Positions 4,200 through 62,273 of a stretch of DNA of 64,000 bases are shown in pieces; the first letter of the stretch is position 1; each line of letters starts with the position of its first letter. The position numbers were made by a program, and so were the translations under genes. Source of the DNA: Bacillus cereus (GTDB lineage Bacteria > Bacillota > Bacilli > Bacillales > Bacillaceae_G); contig NZ_NUOT01000008.1 of assembly GCF_002584535.1 (NCBI RefSeq), positions 310,001-374,000 of the forward strand, given 5' to 3'. The notes beneath the pieces were generated by a model. It did not search any database, was not told the DNA's origin, and worked only from the letters and a program-made list of their open reading frames with translations.

Positions 4200-5330
4200 T
4201 CATCCCCTTTGCTCTATTAAGTCGCTGACCATCTTTCGAAATTCCTTATTAAAATCATCATCCACGCCATTTTGTACATTTGAGAATAAAATAACAAATG
4301 TTCTCTTATCCTTATTGAAATTATTAAATGTATTCCAGCCAGAAAGTACACCATGATTATGAAAATAATCAGGATAAATATAAAAACTAAATGCATATTT
4401 TCGTGCTGGTGAAGGTGTAAACATTGCTTGGATACTTTGTTGTGAAAGAAGTTTTCCATTTATAATTGCTTCATCCAACTTCTTCATATCTCCAACTGTA
4501 GTATACATCTCACCACAGCCGTATAACCAATCCATTGCCAATTTTGGTGCAGGTACAAGTACATTATCTTTCTTTTTATATCCTTTAGTAAAATGTTGAT
4601 CTCCTGGCACCATATTCCCCATGCCTGATTCATACATTTCTGCTCGTGCAAAAATATTCTCCTTTATGTATTCTCCTAAAGGCTTTTTAGATATATTTTC
4701 TATAATGTAAGCCAACACCATATAATTATAATCAGTGTATTCCCAACCAGTTCCTGGCGGAAAAGCTACTTGTTGCTTTCCAATCCAAGTAACTAAATTC
4801 AAATGGGATGCAGCATTCACTTTCCCCTTTCCCTTCCCTGGTAAACCAGAAGTATGTGTCAGAAGATGATATAATGTAATATTTTTATCTGCCGGGAATG
4901 AAGGGATATATTTATTTACATTATCCTGAATATTTAACTTCCCCTGCTCTTGCAGCTGTAAAATCGATGTTGCCACAACAGTCTTAGTAATTGAACCGAT
5001 ACGATATTTTGTTTGTGGCGTATTTTCAATTTTATTTTGAACATCTGCGTACCCATATCCTTTATTCAACACAACATGATCTTTATCCGTGACAAGAACT
5101 GTTCCATTGAAATTTTTATCTTTTAAATATTGATCTAACTTTTGTGCCACACTGGCATAATCAATTGGCCGTCCCTCTTTTTCTTCCGATTTATCATGTA
5201 ACGCAGAATCAACAGAAGGCGTTACCTTAGGAGTTGCTATTTCCTCCTTCTTTGGTATAGAAAAAAAGTAATACACACTCCCGCATACTATACAGAAACT
5301 CAAGACCATAATAATTAATCTTTTTGTCAT
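4200..5330 (-). CDS. Serine hydrolase of the beta-lactamase/class C family, exported
   Basis: 376 residues. An N-terminal hydrophobic segment after KR (about residues 3-25) looks like a signal anchor. The catalytic SxxK is in GSITKTVV (about residue 117), the YxN-like motif in YTDYNYMVL (about residue 203), and an HxG-type motif in HNHGVLSGW near the C-terminus. Such proteins include D-aminopeptidases, esterases and penicillin-binding-like proteins; being in this family is not proof of antibiotic resistance. I chose the ATG with GGAGG seven bases upstream over a TTG two codons earlier. It is the first gene of the operon with ykwC. Confidence 0.85.
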   Translation of the reverse strand: MTKRLIIMVLSFCIVCGSVYYFFSIPKKEEIATPKVTPSVDSALHDKSEEKEGRPIDYASVAQKLDQYLKDKNFNGTVLVTDKDHVVLNKGYGYADVQNKIENTPQTKYRIGSITKTVVATSILQLQEQGKLNIQDNVNKYIPSFPADKNITLYHLLTHTSGLPGKGKGKVNAASHLNLVTWIGKQQVAFPPGTGWEYTDYNYMVLAYIIENISKKPLGEYIKENIFARAEMYESGMGNMVPGDQHFTKGYKKKDNVLVPAPKLAMDWLYGCGEMYTTVGDMKKLDEAIINGKLLSQQSIQAMFTPSPARKYAFSFYIYPDYFHNHGVLSGWNTFNNFNKDKRTFVILFSNVQNGVDDDFNKEFRKMVSDLIEQRG

Positions 5331-5423
5331 TAACAAACCTCCGCAGTTATTTTATTATAAATGGTCCCCCTCTTTCTATTATCAGACAACAGAAAAAAAT
5401 CGCAACACTTTGTTGCGAAAAAG

Positions 5424-6719
5424 TTACATTTTTTCTTTTCTATATAAACGTACTTGGTTTTTTCCATTTTTTTTCGCTTCATATAATGCAATATCCGCTC
5501 GTTGCATCAATTCTTCTTTTGTAATTCCTTGCTCATATAAAGCAACTCCAAAACTCGCGGTTAATTTTGAAATACTAGAAAATTGTTTTGTTTCAATAAA
5601 AAATCGTAATGATTCAGCAACTTGAAAAGCCTCTTTTTCCGTTGTATTTATTACTAATATAATAAATTTCTCACCACCCCACCTTGCAAAAATATGCTGG
5701 GGTGCTATTTTAGATTTCATAAGTTCAGCTAACTGAATTAATGCTAAATCACCAAAATCATGTCCATATGTGTCATTTACTTTTTTTAAATCGTCTATAT
5801 CAAAAAGAATAATTGCCATTGTGTGATTCATTCGTTTCTCATTATCCCATTTTTCTTCTAATAATTGTTGAAACTTCAAACGATTGTATATTTCTGTTAA
5901 AGAATCAATTGCAACAAGCTGTTCTTGCTCTTGATATAATTCATCTAGTTCCGTAATATCTGTACAGTTAACAATAAACCTAGACAAATCTTCTGGCACA
6001 GGTACCGCACGTAATAAAAAAACAAATTCTTCGCCTTCATAATTATACATTTTTATTTTTCTGGATTGTTCTAAAGAATCATCGAGCCAAGTTATATCAT
6101 GTTTTGTTGCATAATATCCATGATCTTGGATAAAATGTTCTGCAAATACCATATGTTTCTCACGGTATGAAAGTAAATCTTCATATCCAAAAAAACTCAA
6201 AAAGTTCGTATTACAGTCAACGATCTCATCATCTTCTACAATAAATAATAAATCATTTTGAAAATCAAACATCATTTGAAGAAGCTCTTGTTGAATAGTC
6301 ACCTGCTGCAATAGTGATATTTGATAGAGACATTTGTTTACCTCTTCCAGTACAACCTGTGATGTAACAGGAGCTATCACAATATTTCGCACTCCTATTG
6401 TAAGCAACTCTACAAATTTTGACGTCACCGGATGATCCCAAATAACAATAAAAGAACTCCTTGGATTATACATGTGTTTTATATACTCTACTTGTGCACC
6501 ATTTGACACATATATGATCACAATTTGCGGTCGAACTTTTTCTAATAATCTTTCTCCTTCTTCAAAACTACTTGCTAAAAACATACATTTTGGATGTATC
6601 TCATCAATCGTATACTGGTGATTACACCCTTCTTCTATATAAAGTACATTTACATGGAGATCCTGTAATACATTTTGAAAAACCGTATTCTCTAATAAAA
6701 AATGTAGTATGTTCACCAC
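5424..6719 (-). CDS. PAS-GGDEF protein with a degenerate GGEKF signature
   Basis: 431 residues in three parts. Residues 1-125 look like a response-regulator fold without a clear phospho-acceptor aspartate (PQIVIIYVSNG). Residues about 145-265 are PAS-like (NDLLFIVEDDEIVDC...NCTDITE). Residues about 268-431 are a GGDEF domain (DSLTEIYNRLKF...FARWGGEKF). The signature is GGEKF, with lysine where active cyclases have glutamate, and no RxxD inhibitory site precedes it. It may be a weak or inactive diguanylate cyclase acting as a sensor or GTP/c-di-GMP receptor. The start is uncertain (two GTG codons, weak SD). Monocistronic. Confidence 0.85.
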   Translation of the reverse strand: MVNILHFLLENTVFQNVLQDLHVNVLYIEEGCNHQYTIDEIHPKCMFLASSFEEGERLLEKVRPQIVIIYVSNGAQVEYIKHMYNPRSSFIVIWDHPVTSKFVELLTIGVRNIVIAPVTSQVVLEEVNKCLYQISLLQQVTIQQELLQMMFDFQNDLLFIVEDDEIVDCNTNFLSFFGYEDLLSYREKHMVFAEHFIQDHGYYATKHDITWLDDSLEQSRKIKMYNYEGEEFVFLLRAVPVPEDLSRFIVNCTDITELDELYQEQEQLVAIDSLTEIYNRLKFQQLLEEKWDNEKRMNHTMAIILFDIDDLKKVNDTYGHDFGDLALIQLAELMKSKIAPQHIFARWGGEKFIILVINTTEKEAFQVAESLRFFIETKQFSSISKLTASFGVALYEQGITKEELMQRADIALYEAKKNGKNQVRLYRKEKM

Positions 6720-25142: not shown

Positions 25143-25176
25143 AAAAATAAGCAGGAGAACGATCCTGCTTATTTTT
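25143..25176. terminator. Terminator at the end of the spoVA operon
   Basis: 14-bp stem AAAAATAAGCAGGA with TCCTGCTTATTTTT around a 6-nt loop; it includes the spoVAF stop codon and has T-runs on both strands. Confidence 0.88.
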
Positions 25177-26641
25177 GTCTACGTATATTTTGTGGATGGA
25201 CAATACTTGGACGCACTTTTAAACTAGACATGGTCGGGCGTAATAATATTGTTTTTAATGCTCCCCAGTCAAATGGTAAAAACGGCCATAAATATGGTGT
25301 TTGCAAACTTTTGATGGACGTTAAAAATAAAATTAACATCGTCATGCCAATTACAAATCCTATCTCATGGAAGAAGCCAGTTAAAATAATAACAAATAAT
25401 TTCCCTAGTTTGTTTCCAAGTCCTAATTCGTAACTTGGTGTTGCATATATTCCAATCATTGAAACCGCTGTATATAAAATAACTTCTGGAACAAATAATC
25501 CAACGTCAATTGCAATTTGCCCAATTAAAATCGCTGAAATTAAGCCGGTAGCTGATGATAGAGGAGTTGGTGTATGAATCGATGCCATTCGCAAAAATTC
25601 AATTCCAATATCGGCCATAACTATTTGTAACAATATAGGGAGATTGGTCATTTTATTTGGTCCAATGAAAGCAAGTTTTTCTGGTAACAACGTTGGATCG
25701 AACACAAAAACAAGCCAAAACGGTAATAAAAACAAAGAAAATATAATACCTACAAAACGAACCCATCTCAAAAATGTACCAACTGCCGGATTTTGCCTAA
25801 ACTCTTCCGCGTGCTGTACATGGTGAAAATAAGTTGTTGGTGTAATCATTACGCTTGGTGATGTATCAACAATGAGTAATACATGTCCTTCTAATAAATG
25901 ATTTGCCGCTACATCAGGTCTTTCTGTATAACGAATAAGTGGAAAAGGATTATAACTTTGTTTAACCAGAAACTCTTCAATCGTTTTATCTGCCATTGTA
26001 ATGCCATCCATTTCAATACTCTCTAGCTCTTGCTTAATAATTTTTATCAAATCTGGATTCGCAACATCTTGAACATACGTAATGCAAATATCCGTTTGCG
26101 ATCTATCTCCCACCCGAATAATTTCGTTTCGAAGGCGCGGATCACGAATACGTCTTCTTATCAATGCTGTATTAACAACAATGTTTTCCACAAAACCATC
26201 TCTTGCCCCGCGCACTACTTTTTCTGTATCCGGCTCTGTCGGTGTTCGGCCTGGATAACTACGAACATCAATTACAAAAGCTTCTGTTTCACCTTCTACA
26301 AAAATAATTACAAGACCAGATAAAACTTGTAGCATTACTTCATCCATCGTTTTCACTTTACTTACTTGTTGATGGATAAGTCGATTTTCTAAAAGCTTTA
26401 CGGTATTCTCACCAACATCCCTTATCTCATTTGTATCAACTGCTTCTTCTAAAATCGGAATAATGTAGTTTGTATCACACAATCCATTTACAAATAATAC
26501 ACCAATCTCTTTATCAAGAATTTGAAACTTACGAATTCCTACATCAAATGTGACACCAAGTCCAGCTGTTTGTTTCAAATAATTTTCATTATCACTTATG
26601 AAGGAAGAAATCGGGATATTAACTTTCTTTTGTTTCGTCAT
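25169..26641 (-). CDS. spoVAF: Stage V sporulation protein AF
   Basis: 490 residues of the GerA/SpoVAF family. A soluble N-terminal half (about 1-285) precedes five or so membrane helices. It is related to germinant receptor A subunits and is made in the forespore with the DPA channel, where it affects germination. I use the ATG at 26641 (MTKQKK); a GTG three codons earlier is possible. It overlaps spoVAEa by 23 bp. The family's [19 protein letters not shown] segment is clear near 249. Confidence 0.95.
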
Positions 26642-27197
26642 AAAACCCACTTCTTTCTAAAATTAATTGAATTGCTTTTTTTGTAATTGGCGATCCTCGC
26701 TCCCACTCATCATTTCTACACATCTTTCCTATATCACCAATCCCTACAATTACAGGGACAGTTAATTCATCTAAACAATAAATCGTATCTCCATTAATTC
26801 TGCCAATTTCACCATCGGGGAGTCCGAATTTATCAACACCATATTCTGTTAATCTGCCTTCTCGATCTATACTGATATCTACACGAGCCCACTCCCAATG
26901 ATGTGTATTAGATGCAACGGCTAAAATACCAAGAACATCAATTTGTTTATGCATTGCCACATATTTTAGCGCCTTTTCACCGGAACCCTCCCCTATAAAT
27001 CCACTATCATCAAACATAACAAATACAGGGTCATATGGCGTTTGCATAATTAGCTCCACAATCTTCTTTCCCGTCAATTTTGTTGGATTGCTTTGCGATG
27101 CAGAAATACACCTTCCGCCAAATTCCTTTGTTAACAGCTCAATCGTTCTTTTTGCATATTCATCTCCATCTGTCACCAAGATAACCCTTCGTCTCAT
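26619..27197 (-). CDS. spoVAEA: Stage V sporulation protein AEA
   Basis: 192 residues, soluble. Begins [19 protein letters not shown], a conserved start of this spore protein, followed by [21 protein letters not shown]. It is part of the SpoVA set that moves dipicolinic acid into and out of the spore, although its own role is unclear. It starts 5 bp after spoVAEB ends and overlaps spoVAF. Confidence 0.93.
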
Positions 27198-27202
27198 TTG
27201 AT

Positions 27203-27553
27203 TTATCCTTTCGGTTTACATATAAGTGCTACAAAAAATGCAAATAATATCGCTGCTGAAATACCTGAAGAAGTTAAGCTAAACATGCCAATTCCAATTC
27301 CTAAATAACCATGTTTTTCAGCCGCCTCTAGTGCCCCGTGTAAAAGGGAATGTCCAAAGCTCGTTATAGGAACAGTTGCACCTGCACCTGCAAATTTTAT
27401 GAGCTTATCATATAGTCCAAAACTATCTAAAATCGCTCCAATCACTACAAACGTTGCCATCAAATGTGCAGGGGTTAATTTAGCAAAATCCAATAAAATC
27501 TGTCCTATAACACAGATAGCTCCTCCAACGATAAACGCATATATAAAATCCAC
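27203..27553 (-). CDS. spoVAEB: Stage V sporulation protein AEB
   Basis: 116 residues, three to four membrane helices. Related in sequence to SpoVAC ([17 protein letters not shown] and the [16 protein letters not shown] motif), and part of the inner-membrane DPA channel. The start is a GTG with AAAAGGGGTGTG upstream, 3 bp after spoVAD. Confidence 0.95.
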
Positions 27554-27556
27554 AAT

Positions 27557-28573
27557 TCACACCCCTTTTACCCTTTCAAATACAACCCCATGTGCAATTG
27601 TCGGAATCGTTTCTTTTTGTTGAATCATAATCGGGCTTAACAATGCTCCTGTTGCAACTACAAAAATACGTTGTAAGTTTCCCTTTTGCATTTCTTTTAA
27701 TAAATGACCGTATGTTACAACTGCCGAACAAGCACACCCGCTTCCACCTGCAAAGACCTCTTCTTGATCCCCATAATAAATCATTAATCCGCAATCATTA
27801 TATACATTCCCTAAATCATACCCTTCCTCGAGTAAAAGTTGCTTCGTAATTGGCGCTCCAACACCTGATAAATCACCTGTAACGATTAGATCATAATCTG
27901 CTGCGCTTCTTCCTAAATCTTCAAAATGCTGTTGAATTGTATGAGCGGCAGCAGGCGCCATTGCTGACCCCATATCAAAAGGATCTGCAATTCCTAAATC
28001 TTGCACTACCCCAATGGTTGCAGCTGTTACTTTAATATTGCTCTGTTCTTTACTAATTAAAACTGCCCCTGCTCCTGTAACAGTTGATGTTGCTGTACCA
28101 GGTCTTTGCCCCCCGTATTCTGTCGGATAACGGAACTGCCGTTCGGCAGTTGCATTATGACTACTAACTGTAGCTATCACACGGTTAGCAAATCCTCCAT
28201 CAATAAAAGCCGATCCAATTGCTAATGTTTCCATTGATGTCGCACAAGCACTGAACATGCCTAACAAAGGAATTCCAAGCTCCCGAGCCACGTAATTTGC
28301 TGTAACAGTTTGGTTTAATAAATCGCCTGCTAAAAGAAAATCAATTTGCGAAGGCTTTACATCTCCTTTTTGCATGACTTGCTGAATTGAATCATTCATC
28401 AATCGTCTTTCAGCGAGTTCCCAATTCTCTTCCTGACAGTGCAATTCATCATATGAAATATCAAAACACTTTCCAAGAGGACCTTCCGCTTCTTTTGGAC
28501 CGACAGCAGTACCTGTTGCATTCACAAATATATTATTTTGAAATACCCATGTTTGCTTCCCTGTCAATCTCAT
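27557..28573 (-). CDS. spoVAD: Stage V sporulation protein AD (DPA-binding)
   Basis: 338 residues with a thiolase/ketoacyl-synthase III fold. SpoVAD binds dipicolinic acid on the spore inner membrane. The pseudo-active-site cysteine segment GMFSACATSMETL is near 112 and the late GGSGCACSAVV near 275. The start has AAAGGAGACTAG upstream, and it lies 12 bp after spoVAC. Confidence 0.97.
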   Translation of the reverse strand: MRLTGKQTWVFQNNIFVNATGTAVGPKEAEGPLGKCFDISYDELHCQEENWELAERRLMNDSIQQVMQKGDVKPSQIDFLLAGDLLNQTVTANYVARELGIPLLGMFSACATSMETLAIGSAFIDGGFANRVIATVSSHNATAERQFRYPTEYGGQRPGTATSTVTGAGAVLISKEQSNIKVTAATIGVVQDLGIADPFDMGSAMAPAAAHTIQQHFEDLGRSAADYDLIVTGDLSGVGAPITKQLLLEEGYDLGNVYNDCGLMIYYGDQEEVFAGGSGCACSAVVTYGHLLKEMQKGNLQRIFVVATGALLSPIMIQQKETIPTIAHGVVFERVKGV

Positions 28574-28585
28574 ATCTAGTCTCCT

Positions 28586-29044
28586 TTAAGATAACCAAAG
28601 TTTAAACGTATATCGAATTAGACCAACAATGTATGCTCCAACAACACCAAAGACAATTACACTTCCAGCAAGCTTAAACATATTTGTCGCAACTCCGAGT
28701 ACAATTCCCTCACTACGATGCTCAATTGCCGCACTTGCCATTGAATTTGCAAATCCAGTAACAGGAACTGCTGAACCAGCCCCCCCAAATTGACCGATTT
28801 TATCATACACACCCAATCCCGTTAACACAGCTGATAATAACACAAGCGTTGCTATTGTAGGATTTCCGGCATTTTGCTCACTGAAGTGAAAATAGTGCAT
28901 ATAAAATTTCATCAAGCATTCACCTACTGTACAAATCAGGCCCCCTACGACAAACGCTTTTACACAATTCATCACATAATTTGACTTTGGGTGATAATCT
29001 TTTACTTTATGTATGTAATCATCTTTTAATTTATTTTGTGTCAT
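28586..29044 (-). CDS. spoVAC: Stage V sporulation protein AC
   Basis: 152 residues with about four membrane helices. Forms part of the DPA channel; the B. subtilis protein has been described as mechanosensitive. The conserved VVGGLICTVGECL and GGAGSAVPVTGFANS segments are intact. I chose the ATG at 29044 with GGAGGT six bases upstream. That site sits at the stop of the spoVAB remnant, so upstream deletion has left spoVAC translation intact. Confidence 0.95.
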   Translation of the reverse strand: MTQNKLKDDYIHKVKDYHPKSNYVMNCVKAFVVGGLICTVGECLMKFYMHYFHFSEQNAGNPTIATLVLLSAVLTGLGVYDKIGQFGGAGSAVPVTGFANSMASAAIEHRSEGIVLGVATNMFKLAGSVIVFGVVGAYIVGLIRYTFKLWLS

Positions 29045-29055
29045 CTTATTACCTC

Positions 29056-29178
29056 CTACCTTGCAAAATAAATCCAATGAAACAAAGACCCCATTACCTT
29101 CCCAAGCACAAGTGCAACGAGTAGAACCACAATTTTCCCATCTCCTCCGACACGTTTTGTGATTTTATAAACAAGTTG
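29056..29178 (-). pseudogene. spoVAB: spoVAB C-terminal remnant
   Basis: Read in a different frame from the spoVAA fragment, this DNA encodes KRVGGDGKIVVLLVALVLG and then KVMGSLFHWIYFAR before TAG at 29058-29056. This matches the C-terminal 35 or so residues of SpoVAB. The first roughly 105 codons are missing, and an in-frame stop lies upstream. It cannot make a working protein. Confidence 0.85.
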
Positions 29179-29309
29179 TTTTTTATTTTCTCTACTATGC
29201 TAAAATCTCCAACAACTTGTGCAACCTCTTCAATCTTCACCTCATATGAAGGAGATACCCTCAGCCTATTTCGCATTTTGAGATAGATTGTTCGCTCCAC
29301 TCCACTCAT
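29094..29309 (-). pseudogene. spoVAA: spoVAA N-terminal remnant fused out of frame to spoVAB
   Basis: 71-codon open frame. The first 48 or so residues (MSGVERTIYLKMRNRLRVSP..., IEEVAQVVGDFSIVEKIKNN) match the start of SpoVAA, a protein of about 205 residues in B. subtilis. From about residue 50 the frame reads through spoVAB DNA in the wrong phase. The missing part (about 155 codons of spoVAA and 105 of spoVAB) indicates one deletion of roughly 0.75-0.8 kb. The sigma-G promoter in front is intact. Confidence 0.85.
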
Positions 29310-29332
29310 CTCTTCACTATTCCTCGTAGTTG

Positions 29333-29363
29333 TAGTATGGTTTTTGGAAATTTTTCTAATACA
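29333..29363 (-). promoter_or_regulatory. Sigma-G promoter of the spoVA operon
   Basis: Minus strand TGTATT (-35, 29363-29358), 18-bp spacer, CATACTA (-10, 29339-29333). The -10 is an exact match to the sigma-G consensus. Drives late forespore expression. Confidence 0.8.
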
Positions 29364-29404
29364 ACTTTTTTCATAAAAGTATTAGAGATTTACTACCGAT
29401 TTAA

Positions 29405-29447
29405 ATAAAAAAACATCTGCACCATGTGAGTACAGATGTTTTTTTAT
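29405..29447. terminator. Bidirectional terminator between sigF and spoVA
   Basis: AAACATCTG (29411-29419) pairs with CAGATGTTT (29433-29441); A/T runs flank both sides. It may back up the sigF terminator. Confidence 0.8.
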
Positions 29448-29623
29448 TATGACAAGTTTATATTTTAAATTTACTAAACCACCAATAAATTCTGTAAATA
29501 TTTCCAGATGATTGAAATTCTTTGGTTTTGGAAAAGATAACAACAATAACATAAGATACAACTTTTTCATGATTTTTTTCTTTCCAAGTTTAGTTGAAAT
29601 ATCAATGCCGTCTAGTCTAATAC

Positions 29624-29658
29624 AAAAAATCGAATAGATGGCTATTCATCTATTCGAT
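29624..29658 (-). terminator. Terminator overlapping the sigF stop
   Basis: ATCGAATAGATG (minus 29658-29647) pairs with CATCTATTCGAT (29640-29629) followed by six T residues. The stop codon is in the loop. Confidence 0.9.
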
Positions 29659-30400
29659 CTTTCATCTGTTTTAATATTTTCTTTTCAAGCCTTGATACTT
29701 GAACCTGTGAAATTCCAATTCTCTCTGCTACTTCTGATTGAGTTTGATCTTTATAATAGCGCAAATATACAATTAAACGTTCGCGCTCATCCAATTCTCT
29801 AATCGCCTCTTTTAAGGCGATTTTATCAAACCATTTCGTTTCTGTTTGATCTGCAATTTGATCTAAGATTGTAATAGGATCTCCATCATTTTCATAAACC
29901 GTTTCATGTATGGATGATGGAGTACGGCTCGCTTCCTGTGCAAGAACCACTTCTTCTGGCGTTAGTTCAAGCGCCTCTGCTACCTCATTAATTGTTGGAG
30001 CCCTTCCATATTCTTTAGAAAGCTCATCTTTCATTTTTCGAATTTTATTTCCAGTCTCTTTTAAAGAGCGACTTACTTTCACTGATCCATCATCACGCAA
30101 AAATCGCTGTATTTCTCCAATAATCATTGGAACTGCATAGGTTGAAAATTTCACTTCAAAAGACAAATCAAATTTATCTACCGACTTCAAGAGCCCAATA
30201 CAGCCAATTTGAAATAGATCATCTGGTTCATATCCTCGATTGAGGAAGCGTTGTACAACCGACCATACAAGCCGCATATTACTTTGGACTATCGTATCTC
30301 TCGCCCCTTGATCTCCATCTTGACTTTTTTGAATTAACGCTTTTAACTCGTGGTCCTTTAACTGAGGTTTCTTCTTCTCATTTCTGACCTCTATGTCCAT
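29642..30400 (-). CDS. sigF: RNA polymerase sigma-F factor
   Basis: 252 residues. First forespore-specific sigma factor. Region 2 (YEPDDLFQIGCIGLLKSVDKF, in part) and the region 4 helix-turn-helix (TQSEVAERIGISQVQVSRLEKK) are intact. Activity is held off by SpoIIAB, encoded just upstream. I use the ATG at 30400, eight bases after AAGGAG; a TTG two codons earlier is too close. Targets include dacF. Confidence 0.98.
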   Translation of the reverse strand: MDIEVRNEKKKPQLKDHELKALIQKSQDGDQGARDTIVQSNMRLVWSVVQRFLNRGYEPDDLFQIGCIGLLKSVDKFDLSFEVKFSTYAVPMIIGEIQRFLRDDGSVKVSRSLKETGNKIRKMKDELSKEYGRAPTINEVAEALELTPEEVVLAQEASRTPSSIHETVYENDGDPITILDQIADQTETKWFDKIALKEAIRELDERERLIVYLRYYKDQTQSEVAERIGISQVQVSRLEKKILKQMKDRIDE

Positions 30401-30412
30401 AGGCAATTCTCC

Positions 30413-33156: not shown

Positions 33157-34003
33157 TAATCAAGTCATTTTAGACAATATTTCTTTCACATTACAAAAAG
33201 GAAGTATTGTGGGATTACTCGGAAGAAACGGTGCGGGGAAAACTACTTTACTTCAAACACTCGTTGGTATTTTAGACCCAGATGAAGGTACTGTTACATA
33301 CGACGAAACAGATGTTCATAAACATCCAGAAACGAAGCAGAAGGTAGCTTATGTACCAGATTCCACGAATGTATTAAACGGGTATACAGTAAAAGAAATC
33401 GCGAAGTTTTATAAAGCTGTTTATCACAATTTTAATGAAGAACATTTCTATAAGCTGCTAGAACGTTTTAAATTACCTGAAAAACGCATTCGCAGTTATT
33501 CACGAGGTATGAAGGCACTTCTTGCTATGATTCTAGCGTTTTGTACAGGTGTAGAATACATTATTTTAGATGAGCCAACCAATGGGCTTGACCCAATTGT
33601 AAAAAGACAAATTTTACAATTTTTAATTGAAGAAGTAGCAGAACGTGAGATTACCATTCTCATTTCTACTCATCACTTAGATGAAGTGGAAAAAATTGCA
33701 GACACGGTTATTATTTTAAAAGATCATACAATCGCATCGATTACAGCATTAGAAGATACGAAATCTCGCTATGCAAAAATACAAGTCGCTTATGAACGTT
33801 CACTACCACAAAAACTAGAAAACTTAAATCATGTAAAAATATTAAATCAAACAGGAAAAGTGTACACGATTTTAATTGAGGGCAATGTAGCAGCTACATT
33901 AGAAAAGTTTCATAAAGAACAGCCTATTTTATTAGAAGAATTACCAATGTCACTCGAAGATATATTTGTCACAACGTTTGAGGAGGATTCGCATGTTTCA
34001 TAA
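33122..34003 (+). CDS. ABC transporter ATP-binding protein
   Basis: 293 residues. Walker A GRNGAGKTT (about 37-45), signature SRGMKALLAM near 134, Walker B EYIILDEPTNGLDP near 151 and the switch histidine in STHHLDEVE near 185. The signature is SRG rather than the usual LSGGQ, as common in YtrB/BcrA-like exporters. It energises the permeases that follow. AGGAGGGAA precedes the ATG. It overlaps the YtrA-type regulator and the first permease. Confidence 0.93.
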   Translation: MLKVTSLKKTIDNQVILDNISFTLQKGSIVGLLGRNGAGKTTLLQTLVGILDPDEGTVTYDETDVHKHPETKQKVAYVPDSTNVLNGYTVKEIAKFYKAVYHNFNEEHFYKLLERFKLPEKRIRSYSRGMKALLAMILAFCTGVEYIILDEPTNGLDPIVKRQILQFLIEEVAEREITILISTHHLDEVEKIADTVIILKDHTIASITALEDTKSRYAKIQVAYERSLPQKLENLNHVKILNQTGKVYTILIEGNVAATLEKFHKEQPILLEELPMSLEDIFVTTFEEDSHVS

Positions 34004-35081
34004 AGCTTTATGGATGAGACAATGGAAACAAGGAAAATATATAATTCTATTGTTTTGGTTAATTAGTTTGTATCAACTCCCTTATAAATATTATCAAGCA
34101 GCACAAACGGCGCTTAACCAATCAAAAATGAAACTGGATGACTATGTGTATTATTATTCCTACTCTTTTAATACATTCGATAATCCCTTCGTCACGCAAG
34201 GAGCCATTCTTATTGCACTGGCTTGTCTTTTAACTGGATGGGAACGTAACAATCAATCTACTGATTTTCTATTCTCGATGCCTTTTAAGCGAAAAGATAT
34301 TTTTTTAACAAAATGGTTGCTTGGCGTTTTGAATATTATTACAGTACACATAATTTGCTGGATTAGCATGTACGGAATAAAAAACATATCGTTTCACAAT
34401 GAGTATCAAGTCTTTACTCCGTTCCATAGTTACTTTGTATATGCTACGGTTGTACTCATTGCTATTTATACATTCACTTTATTTATCGGAACTATTACTG
34501 GAAATATTTTCTCCCAAAGTAGCTTAACGGCAATTTTATTATTTTTACCATACGGTTCCGTATTATTAATCTCTGGATTCATTTATACCCATACACAATG
34601 GTCTTTAGAGGCAATGGGAGAAATAGAGGTGCAGACTCATGAGTACTTACAACATGTAGGGATTATTTCACCATTAGAATCTTTTTCTATTAATTATGAT
34701 TACCATCCGATAGAAACATTTGATGACTATGGAAATAAACTTTCTAGTGTACTACAGGACAATCCAATGGAGCATACTTCTGTGCCTTCTCCTTGGACAC
34801 TATTAACACCATTTGCTTACATCATGATCTTTTTACCATTATCAATTTTTCTATACACACGTACACCGAACGAACAAAACGGAAAAATACTATTGTTTCC
34901 TAGCTTACAAAGGTGGTTCATGCTTTGTACTGTTCTATGCTTCGGATTACTTGGCGGTAGAATATTAGGCGGACGAGATGCACTTCTGTCTTATTATATT
35001 GGATTTTTCCTATTCGCTATCATAAGTTACTTCATTTTTACACGTCTATTAAAATTGAAGTTTGCTTTTGGAGGGAGATAA
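33993..35081 (+). CDS. ABC-2 type permease, first paralog
   Basis: 362 residues, about six membrane helices with a long extracytoplasmic section (about 200-270). Starts at the ATG at 33993 with GAGGAGG upstream, overlapping the ATPase by 11 bp. The opening MFHKALWMRQWKQGKY and the motif CLLTGWERNNQSTDFLFSMP are closely repeated in the second permease, so the two arose by duplication. The transported substrate is unknown; related systems export peptides or act in envelope-stress resistance. Confidence 0.88.
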   Translation: MFHKALWMRQWKQGKYIILLFWLISLYQLPYKYYQAAQTALNQSKMKLDDYVYYYSYSFNTFDNPFVTQGAILIALACLLTGWERNNQSTDFLFSMPFKRKDIFLTKWLLGVLNIITVHIICWISMYGIKNISFHNEYQVFTPFHSYFVYATVVLIAIYTFTLFIGTITGNIFSQSSLTAILLFLPYGSVLLISGFIYTHTQWSLEAMGEIEVQTHEYLQHVGIISPLESFSINYDYHPIETFDDYGNKLSSVLQDNPMEHTSVPSPWTLLTPFAYIMIFLPLSIFLYTRTPNEQNGKILLFPSLQRWFMLCTVLCFGLLGGRILGGRDALLSYYIGFFLFAIISYFIFTRLLKLKFAFGGR

Positions 35082-35085
35082 AGTG

Positions 35086-35195
35086 AAACTTTATTCAGTG
35101 GGGGTTTTCTGTATCCCCCACCTATCTTCCTCGTTTTTCTCTGAATTTTGAGGTGTGGGTCTTACTGCCCGTTAATGTGGGATAAATACGAATTG
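35086..35195 (+). repeat. Structured repeat-like element between paralogous permeases
   Basis: GTGGGGG (35098-35104) pairs with CCCCCAC (35115-35121), and a second structured part contains TTACTGCCCGTTAATGTGGG. This composition is unlike the coding flanks and resembles intergenic repeats I know from B. cereus-group genomes. Its right end supplies GAGGTGGG near the next gene's start. Confidence 0.5.
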
Positions 35196-35205
35196 AGGTG
35201 GGATC

Positions 35206-36273
35206 ATGTTTCATAAAGCTTTATGGATACGGAATTATAAACAAGGAAAATATGTCATTACGCTCTTTTGGCTAAGTATTTTATACGCCTTACCATATAA
35301 ATATTATGCTGCCGCACAGCACACAGATGAGTATTTACGCACGACAACAGATACTTATTATATGTATCATTTAGAGGGAGCGGACGCGATACTGTTTCCA
35401 GGTCTTCTATTAATGGTATTAGCAATCCTCTTAATCGGATGGGAACGCAATAACCAAAGTATCGATTTTCTTTGGTCTATGCCATTTAAACGGTCGCACT
35501 TATTTTTATCAAAATGGTTACTAGGCATTGTTCATATCGTAAGTGCGCTTAGCCTTAGTTGGCTTCTTATGTTTATCATCTATAAAAACACGATACACGT
35601 TCAATACCAATCCTTTTCACCATTTCATGTATACTTTGCTTATACAATCATTACGTTAATTGCAGTTTATACATTTACGCTCTTTATTGGGACGATTACA
35701 GGAAATGTGATTTCACAAAGTGTTTTAAGTTACATTATTATCATTTTACCTTTATACATCTTTCAGCTTGCGTTCCCTTTTTTCGCACTACATATAGATT
35801 TATCACGAGAAGAGTACAATTATAATTACATTAAATATGAAAAATATACAGAAAATATAAGTGTAGTAGCTCCTCTTAATCAGTTTCGTATTAACTACAA
35901 CTATGATCCACAGAGGGACACTTTTGAAGATGAATTCGGAAACATACGAACAGGACCTACTTATCATCACACCCCGTCTGCTTGGGCACTGTTAAGCCCT
36001 GTTATCTATATACTCATTTGTCTTCCGCTAGGAGCTTATCTATATACACGCGCTCCGAATGAACATAACGGAAAAATATTGCTATATCCAAGACTTCATA
36101 AGTATTTCTTAATCTGTACTTCTATTTGTTTCGCACTTCTTGGCGGTACTATTTTTATTGATGGTAGTAATTCTTTACCTCTTTACTATATTTATTTTAT
36201 AGGGTCTGGCATACTGACATATATTATCTTGCAGCGACTGTTAAAACACAAGCTTTCTTTATATGCAAAATAA
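35206..36273 (+). CDS. ABC-2 type permease, second paralog
   Basis: 355 residues, about six membrane helices. Near-duplicate plan of the preceding permease: MFHKALWIRNYKQGKYVITLFWL at the start (shared spacing), LIGWERNNQSIDFLWSMPF in the first third, and LFIGTITGNVISQS in the middle. The two could form a heterodimeric channel with the shared ATPase. It is preceded by the repeat element, and the gap of 124 bp contrasts with the overlaps earlier in the operon. GAGGTGGGATC precedes the ATG. Confidence 0.88.
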   Translation: MFHKALWIRNYKQGKYVITLFWLSILYALPYKYYAAAQHTDEYLRTTTDTYYMYHLEGADAILFPGLLLMVLAILLIGWERNNQSIDFLWSMPFKRSHLFLSKWLLGIVHIVSALSLSWLLMFIIYKNTIHVQYQSFSPFHVYFAYTIITLIAVYTFTLFIGTITGNVISQSVLSYIIIILPLYIFQLAFPFFALHIDLSREEYNYNYIKYEKYTENISVVAPLNQFRINYNYDPQRDTFEDEFGNIRTGPTYHHTPSAWALLSPVIYILICLPLGAYLYTRAPNEHNGKILLYPRLHKYFLICTSICFALLGGTIFIDGSNSLPLYYIYFIGSGILTYIILQRLLKHKLSLYAK

Positions 36274-61872: not shown

Positions 61873-61883
61873 GTGAGCAAACA

Positions 61884-62026
61884 GCATCCTTCGGGGTCGG
61901 GTGAAATTCCCAACCGGCGGTGATGAAGTGCACACTTCTAAGTCCGTGACCCGTTTTCACTCTTGGAAACGGTGGATCTAGTGAAATTCTAGGGCCGACA
62001 GTATAGTCTGGATGGGAGAAGGATAT
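61884..62026 (+). promoter_or_regulatory. FMN riboswitch (RFN element)
   Basis: P1 pairs ATCCTTC (61885-61891) with GAAGGAT (62018-62024). Conserved RFN strings are present: TTCGGGGTCGGGTGAAATTC, CCGGCGGTGATGAAG, AGTCCGTGACCC, GTGGATCTAGTGAAATTCTA and GGGCCGACAGTATAGTCTGG. It senses FMN and controls ribD/ribE. The distance to the terminator is unusually long. Confidence 0.97.
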
Positions 62027-62273
62027 GTTTTCTAGTTCTTATATAGCGAATACACTTTTATTTTGGCGTACACATGTGTACTGATTCGTTTTGAATCACT
62101 GTATGTGTTTTCTTTCATATACCTATTTTTCTATGCTGAAATAAAAAGATACGACTAGCGTATGAAAATTGATAGTTTGCTAGGTTTTTTTCTCATGCAA
62201 AAATATCAATCATCGTTAGGTTTCTTTCTTATACTTTCGTATTCGAGCTATACTTCTAGAAATCACGTCTCCC

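What the first reader, a model, noticed from the sequence alone, without database searches (positions are those of the whole stretch)
29056..29363. Deletion joins spoVAA and spoVAB remnants behind an intact sigma-G promoter
The first ~48 codons of spoVAA and the last ~35 of spoVAB are recognisable but in different frames, so about 0.75-0.8 kb is missing. The sigma-G promoter (-35 TGTATT, 18 bp, -10 CATACTA) and the spoVAC ribosome-binding site are intact, so spoVAC-AD-AEB-AEA-AF can still be expressed. This strain would rely on a DPA channel without SpoVAA/AB from this locus, or on another spoVA copy. If real it may change germination or DPA uptake.
Basis: partly seen in the sequence, partly recalled or inferred. 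Interest (0 to 1): 0.75.

Follow-up and report, generated by a model that had tools for sequence, protein, structure and literature searches.

The report
Broken spoVAA–spoVAB pair in spore operon
A spore-forming Bacillus has lost two of the seven genes of one of its spore germination operons to a small deletion while the rest stays readable; other spore-formers lose the same pair now and then, so this is a modest, fresh example rather than a new kind of thing.

Summary
On the minus strand about 49 codons of spoVAA are joined to the last 35 of spoVAB; about 0.78 kb is missing compared with 84 relatives. One correction: the frame change lies inside the spoVAA remnant, not at the join, so there are two lesions. 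The sigma-G-type promoter is conserved and spoVAC-AD-AEb-AEa-AF are intact. No other broken gene was seen in the window.

In 249 genomes of the order SpoVAA and SpoVAB are all-or-none: 223 have both, 26 neither, and 18 of the 26 keep SpoVAD and GerA-family genes.

The window looks like the Bacillus cereus group, which has a second DPA transporter, spoVA2; B. anthracis without all of spoVA1 sporulates and stores DPA normally (PMC13059800). So the loss is probably tolerated. But spoVA2 alone does not explain it: in 10 of 10 genomes examined where a spoVA2-type locus is the only SpoVAD, spoVAA-AB were kept beside spoVAF.

Strain-specific or species-wide, and presence of spoVA2 here, could not be tested: no genome of the group turned up.

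The parts
29333..29363 (-). sigma-G-type promoter of the spoVA operon (-35 TGTATT, 18 bp, -10 CATACTA)
   Evidence: only pattern match in the window, 0.28 expected; nearly the same block in Ectobacillus panaciterrae; a looser pattern lies upstream of spoVAA in 51 of 76 relatives scanned against 42 of 3950 random stretches
29157..29309 (-). 5' remnant of spoVAA, about 49 codons; the frame changes at about 29175-29181
   Evidence: tblastn and three-frame translation; Pfam SporV_AA
29094..29309 (-). 71-aa open frame from the spoVAA start; leaves the spoVAA frame after about codon 43
29150..29166 (-). deletion join; residues here can be read as the end of the spoVAA piece (ITK) or the start of the spoVAB piece (KR), so the exact base cannot be fixed
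29056..29163 (-). 3' remnant of spoVAB, last 35 codons and stop
   Evidence: tblastn, 63-71% identity to SpoVAB of Ectobacillus and Bacillus sp. 165
29052..29057 (-). spoVAC ribosome-binding site AGGAGG
   Evidence: sequence
28586..29044 (-). spoVAC, intact
   Evidence: Pfam SpoVAC_SpoVAEB; 81% to E. panaciterrae
27557..28573 (-). spoVAD, intact
   Evidence: Pfam SpoVAD 3e-154
27203..27553 (-). spoVAEb, intact
   Evidence: Pfam SpoVAC_SpoVAEB
26619..27197 (-). spoVAEa, intact
   Evidence: Pfam SpoVAE
25169..26650 (-). spoVAF, intact GerA-family protein
   Evidence: Pfam GerA 3e-154
29642..30406 (-). sigF (spoIIAC), the usual upstream neighbour
   Evidence: Pfam sigma-70 regions; synteny

Best explanation
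spoVAA and spoVAB of a Bacillus cereus-group spoVA1 operon have been inactivated by a ~0.78-kb deletion that fuses their ends, plus a separate one-base frame change in the remaining spoVAA piece. The sigma-G promoter now drives only spoVAC-AD-AEb-AEa-AF. The loss is tolerated because in this group spoVA1 is not needed for sporulation or DPA storage (spoVA2 does that), while the downstream SpoVAF, a germination amplifier, is kept. Shown here: both lesions, the conserved promoter sequence, the intact downstream genes, and that the pair is normally present and all-or-none in the order. Inferred: B. cereus-group identity, presence of spoVA2 in this genome, and tolerance of the loss.
For: Remnants and size. 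No other broken gene seen in the syntenic window. Promoter. 79 of 80 nearest loci, and 19 of 19 loci of the Ectobacillus family (three of these genomes also among the 80), match both genes, so the state is derived. SpoVAA in 223 of 249 order genomes, SpoVAB in 223 of 249, SpoVAB in 0 of the 26 without SpoVAA. Natural losses: 18 of the 26 keep SpoVAD and the same 18 have GerA-family genes; M. lacus has neither gene at family cut-off but keeps a promoter-like block, spoVAC and 6 GerA-family genes. Literature: PMC13059800 (abstract, introduction, two results sections, discussion, other passages): spoVA1 is dispensable for sporulation and DPA in B. anthracis, and F1 is its most important gene for germination. 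Parallel: unnamed B. subtilis-like genome G155 has three identical spoVA2-type copies and a spoVAB cut by a deletion. Group identity: phosphopentomutase differs at 13 of 393 positions (my count) from PDB 3m8w, which I recall to be from B. cereus.
Against: No B. cereus-group genome turned up and the window's own is not held, so spoVA2 was not seen here. A spoVA2-type locus does not by itself free the pair: in 10 of 10 examined genomes whose only SpoVAD is type 2, spoVAA and spoVAB are kept beside spoVAF although C-D-Eb is gone there. The excess of type 2 among genomes without the pair (13 of 18) falls from p 0.006 to 0.05 as the count among genomes with the pair is corrected from 85 to up to 107 of 223, and for genomes that kept a type-1 locus it is 5 of 10, p 0.51; the genomes are not independent. 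M. lacus lost the pair with a single type-1 SpoVAD. In B. subtilis loss of either protein causes premature germination (PMC11841064).
Confidence: 0.52

Rival explanations
1. The lesion is an assembly or sequencing error; the living strain has intact spoVAA and spoVAB.
For: The frame change lies in an A-rich stretch, where some methods err. B. cereus ATCC 14579 is said to have all seven genes (PMC9241617) and its SpoVAA was detected in spores (PMC8624511).
Against: No other broken gene was seen in the window. Relatives show no long repeat at the two break positions (12 relatives printed with both), so a collapse in assembly is unlikely. The same pair is missing in other genomes.
Confidence: 0.13
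2. The loss has a real cost in this strain: premature, receptor-driven germination or altered DPA release, perhaps in a domesticated or spore-defective isolate.
For: In B. subtilis, loss of SpoVAA or SpoVAB causes premature germination that is suppressed by loss of GerA (PMC11841064, passages). The pair is kept in most genomes, even where C-D-Eb next to it is gone, so it does something useful.
Against: B. anthracis without all of spoVA1 sporulates like its parent (PMC13059800). Genomes without the pair but with GerA-family genes exist (18 of 26; M. lacus).
Confidence: 0.25
3. The whole species has lost the pair: an old, fixed state rather than a strain accident. (This bears on age and spread and may be true together with the best explanation.)
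For: Two lesions are present, and the remnants tend to be less alike to intact copies (40-58% for spoVAA, 63-71% for spoVAB, Ectobacillus and Bacillus sp. 165) than these are to each other (56-88% and 71-97%, one identical pair left out). Phosphopentomutase differs at 13 of 393 positions from the PDB sequence recalled as B. cereus, so this may be a distinct species.
Against: The remnants are still well recognisable and free of stops in their own frames.
Confidence: 0.3
4. The 71-aa product is a working short protein.
For: It keeps start codon, promoter and part of the SporV_AA domain.
Against: Only positions 2-47 of the 90-position domain match, the rest of SpoVAA is gone and the tail is out of frame.
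Confidence: 0.02

Closest known systems
Bacillus subtilis spoVA operon (spoVAA-AB-AC-AD-AEb-AEa-AF)
   Same: Same gene order, same sigF neighbour, sigma-G-type promoter, intact AC-AD-AEb-AEa-AF
   Different: spoVAA and spoVAB are remnants here
spoVA1 operon of the Bacillus cereus group
   Same: Position and core genes fit; [quoted passage not shown] subtilis
   Different: Two of the seven genes are broken in this window
Metabacillus lacus spoVA locus (L011)
   Same: Promoter-like block kept, spoVAC directly downstream, no SpoVAA or SpoVAB found in the genome
   Different: No remnants seen; only one SpoVAD, of type 1, in that genome
spoVAA-AB-(AEa)-AF operons without C-D-Eb (L158-L167, L148)
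   Same: A native spoVA operon next to sigF reduced to part of its genes
   Different: The opposite part is lost: C-D-Eb gone, spoVAA and spoVAB kept
spoVA2 loci (C2-D2-Eb2 with NJ2)
   Same: DPA transporter locus without SpoVAA/SpoVAB
   Different: D2 and C2 only about 47-57% identical to the proteins here; none in this window

Membership tests
spoVA (spoVA1) operon | AC, AD and AEb core genes in order | tested here: met
spoVA (spoVA1) operon | AEa and AF at the 3' end | tested here: met
spoVA (spoVA1) operon | intact spoVAA and spoVAB at the 5' end | tested here: not met
   remnants only
spoVA (spoVA1) operon | sigma-G promoter downstream of the spoIIA operon | tested here: met
   sequence match and conservation only; activity not tested
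Pseudogene by deletion | relatives carry the full genes at the same place | tested here: met
   79 of 80 nearest loci match both genes (one of them, L026, with a frameshifted spoVAA) and 19 of 19 family loci
Pseudogene by deletion | no other full copy in the genome | not testable with these tools
   window's genome not held; none seen in the 64 kb
Bacillus cereus group | close sequence identity to named group members | tested here: inconclusive
   phosphopentomutase about 97% to 3m8w (species recalled); nearest named genomes found are Ectobacillus
Genome with a spoVA2 locus | C2-D2-Eb2-NJ2 elsewhere in the genome | not testable with these tools

The most novel reading that the evidence does not exclude
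The spoVA operon is two separable modules. C-D-Eb, the DPA transporter, is swappable: many genomes of the order seem to have moved it to a spoVA2-type locus. SpoVAA-SpoVAB-(SpoVAEa)-SpoVAF stay together next to sigF without it, so SpoVAA/AB would serve germination signalling with SpoVAF, or any SpoVA transporter, rather than C1-D1-Eb1 alone. The window is then a rare break inside the signalling module itself.
Probability: 0.35. Interest if true: 0.55.

Novelty: new member of a known kind. Interest (0 to 1): 0.32.

Why it matters
What SpoVAA and SpoVAB do is poorly understood. Natural genomes that lack exactly this pair, and others that keep the pair but have moved the DPA transporter elsewhere, are ready-made comparisons for working it out. 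The finding itself is one more, rather fresh, example of the first kind.

Tried and rejected
Second copy of spoVAA/AB in the window: none seen (output cut in the middle). Copies on plasmids: none. Window DNA on plasmids: three searches covering 1-25000, 29000-29640 and 39001-64000 gave nothing above 80% identity; the rest was not searched. SpoVAC in viral contigs: none. Broken genes elsewhere in the window as a sign of poor sequence or general decay: none seen; hits in more than one frame were two pairs of tandem paralogues and one antisense frame (only relatives' ORFs of 80 aa or more were used, so short genes and breaks near gene ends would be missed). Decay test by codon position: too short to decide. 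Redundancy (spoVA2) as a general driver of the loss: not borne out. The 85 of 223 genomes with two or more SpoVAD matches were read by eye and recounted; this is a proxy, not a count of spoVA2. Of the genomes with the pair and one SpoVAD, I had both places for 36; 21 of these have them far apart, and I examined 10 of the 21. The list behind this was cut by score, so 21 of 36 is no rate for the order. Broken copies in relatives (G155, G147, G094, L026) were noticed, not searched for. Papers: spoVAA with pseudogene gave three papers; I saw passages of one, where the pseudogene is gerLA, and did not open the other two. The search with other cereus-group species names listed 15 of 471 papers, none holding spoVAA. 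Structure prediction was not run: it would not bear on a truncated gene.

Full report
What is there. The finding lies on the minus strand between sigF (29642-30406) and spoVAC (start 29044). Intact SpoVAA and SpoVAB from Ectobacillus panaciterrae match two adjacent stretches: SpoVAA 1-40 at 29300-29181 and SpoVAB 106-140 at 29163-29059. The 71-aa open frame 29094-29309 is recognised by Pfam as SporV_AA over positions 2-47 of 90. In 84 relatives the two matching anchor codons lie 781-787 bases apart, median 784. About 0.78 kb is therefore missing: most of SpoVAA after codon ~49 and of SpoVAB before codon ~106.

A second lesion. The three frames show that SpoVAA-like residues continue past codon 40 as LVYKITK, but in another frame, and that this frame runs straight into the SpoVAB remnant. 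The nearest relatives read VYQITK at that place (L001, L003, L033; more distant ones differ). So the frame changes inside the spoVAA piece, at about 29175-29181, and the deletion join keeps the shifted frame. I am fairly, not fully, sure of this, because the segment is only seven residues long.

What is left intact. The promoter TGTATT-18-CATACTA is the only match in the window to its pattern (0.28 expected). The block is nearly the same in E. panaciterrae, and a looser pattern lies upstream of spoVAA in 51 of the 76 relatives scanned against 42 of 3950 random stretches; 25 of 76, among them E. antri, do not match it. spoVAC has its own AGGAGG, and AC, AD, AEb, AEa and AF are intact. No other gene in the window looked broken when compared with syntenic contigs of three relatives.

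Is it derived? Of the 80 nearest loci in genome contigs, 79 match both genes (in one, L026, spoVAA is frameshifted), and so do 19 of 19 loci of the family of G001 (three of those genomes are also among the 80). The sigF tree puts the window beside E. panaciterrae and E. antri (98/85), so the loss fell on the window's own branch.

How common is such loss? SpoVAA is found in 223 of 249 genomes drawn from the order and SpoVAB in 223 of 249. None of the 26 without SpoVAA has SpoVAB, so the pair is all-or-none. Of those 26, 18 keep SpoVAD, and the same 18 have GerA-family genes. Metabacillus lacus (L011), nested among Metabacillus that have the pair, has no match at family cut-off to either gene in its genome. 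It keeps a TGTATG-18-CATACTA block in front of spoVAC (seen) and six GerA-family genes. On the sigF tree the nine rows without the pair fall in M. lacus and two further clusters; the window is separate. The backbone is weakly resolved, so at least three losses, the window's included, is a safe statement. Earlier print, passages only (PMC3533761): spoVAA and spoVAB are listed as present in most bacilli and some clostridia, and as missing in Lysinibacillus sphaericus C3-41, Alicyclobacillus acidocaldarius and Candidatus Arthromitus.

Why it may be tolerated. PMC13059800 (abstract, introduction, two results sections and discussion read, other passages seen) reports that the B. cereus group has spoVA1, with the seven B. 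subtilis genes, and spoVA2, with C2, D2, Eb2 and NJ2. In B. anthracis, removing all of spoVA1 leaves sporulation and DPA as in the parent; spoVA2 is the main importer; either locus can export DPA; and F1 is the most important spoVA1 gene for germination. If the window belongs to this group, losing SpoVAA/AB of spoVA1 should matter little for spore formation, while promoter and SpoVAF are kept. In B. subtilis, by contrast, loss of either protein causes premature germination, suppressed by loss of gerA (PMC11841064, passages). B. cereus ATCC 14579 is said to have all seven genes (PMC9241617, passages), and its SpoVAA was detected in spores in two of three replicates (PMC8624511, passages). So the state in the window is not general for the group.

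Test of redundancy as the cause, and a result against it. SpoVADs of the 18 genomes without the pair were typed by similarity to the window (type 1) and to the second locus of E. panaciterrae (type 2): 13 of 18 carry type 2, 5 of 18 only type 1 (two type-1 calls, L143 and L144, rest on small differences and their gene neighbours). Two or more SpoVAD matches occur in 85 of 223 genomes with the pair (recounted), which gave p 0.006. But that proxy undercounts. Of 36 genomes with the pair, one SpoVAD and both places known to me, 21 have SpoVAD far from spoVAA/AB. I examined 10 of these 21: in 10 of 10 the operon reads AA-AB-(AEa)-AF with no C-D-Eb match between, AEa being found in 5, and the only SpoVAD is type 2; SpoVAC was clearly recognised beside it in 6. 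Counting the 10 and G094 makes 96 of 223 and p 0.02; counting all 22 makes 107 and p 0.05. For genomes that kept a type-1 locus without the pair it is 5 of 10 against 85 of 223, p 0.51. M. lacus has a single SpoVAD, type 1. So a spoVA2-type locus neither suffices for nor is required by loss of the pair. Where spoVA2 is the only transporter, the pair is often kept beside spoVAF.

Other broken cases, noticed in passing and each in a genome with a type-2 locus: G155 with three identical copies and a cut spoVAB, G147 with a frameshifted spoVAA, and G094 with a frameshifted spoVAA and no C-D-Eb left between AB and AEa.

Organism. Phosphopentomutase of the window differs at 13 of 393 positions (my count) from PDB 3m8w, which I recall to be the B. 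cereus enzyme; E. panaciterrae is at 87%. This points to the B. cereus group, perhaps not B. cereus itself. No genome of the group was named, and nothing closer than Ectobacillus appeared, so strain-specific and species-wide loss could not be told apart.

Verdict. A real, derived double lesion in spoVAA/spoVAB with the rest of the operon kept: an ordinary kind of gene loss, probably tolerated thanks to spoVA2, though spoVA2 alone does not explain it. It is worth keeping mainly as a natural test case, together with the AA-AB-AF operons without C-D-Eb, for what the SpoVAA/SpoVAB pair does.

Noticed in passing
Eleven more of the 36 genomes compared have the same separation by position but were not read.
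   Followed up: partly
L011 (Metabacillus lacus), 5786-6013: sigF and spoVAC separated by only about 0.23 kb with a sigma-G-like promoter; spoVAA and spoVAB not found in the genome, which has one type-1 SpoVAD and six GerA-family genes.
   Followed up: yes
   Followed up: partly
   Followed up: partly
   Followed up: partly
L026 (Sutcliffiella horikoshii DSM 8719, Cont80), about 4830-5600: spoVAA frameshifted; this assembly holds two contigs with a spoVAC locus, so it may be mixed.
   Followed up: no
   Followed up: no
window 61883-62027: FMN riboswitch.
   Followed up: no
window 33966-36270: Two tandem paralogous membrane proteins, probably ABC-transporter permeases, downstream of an ATPase gene.
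   Followed up: no
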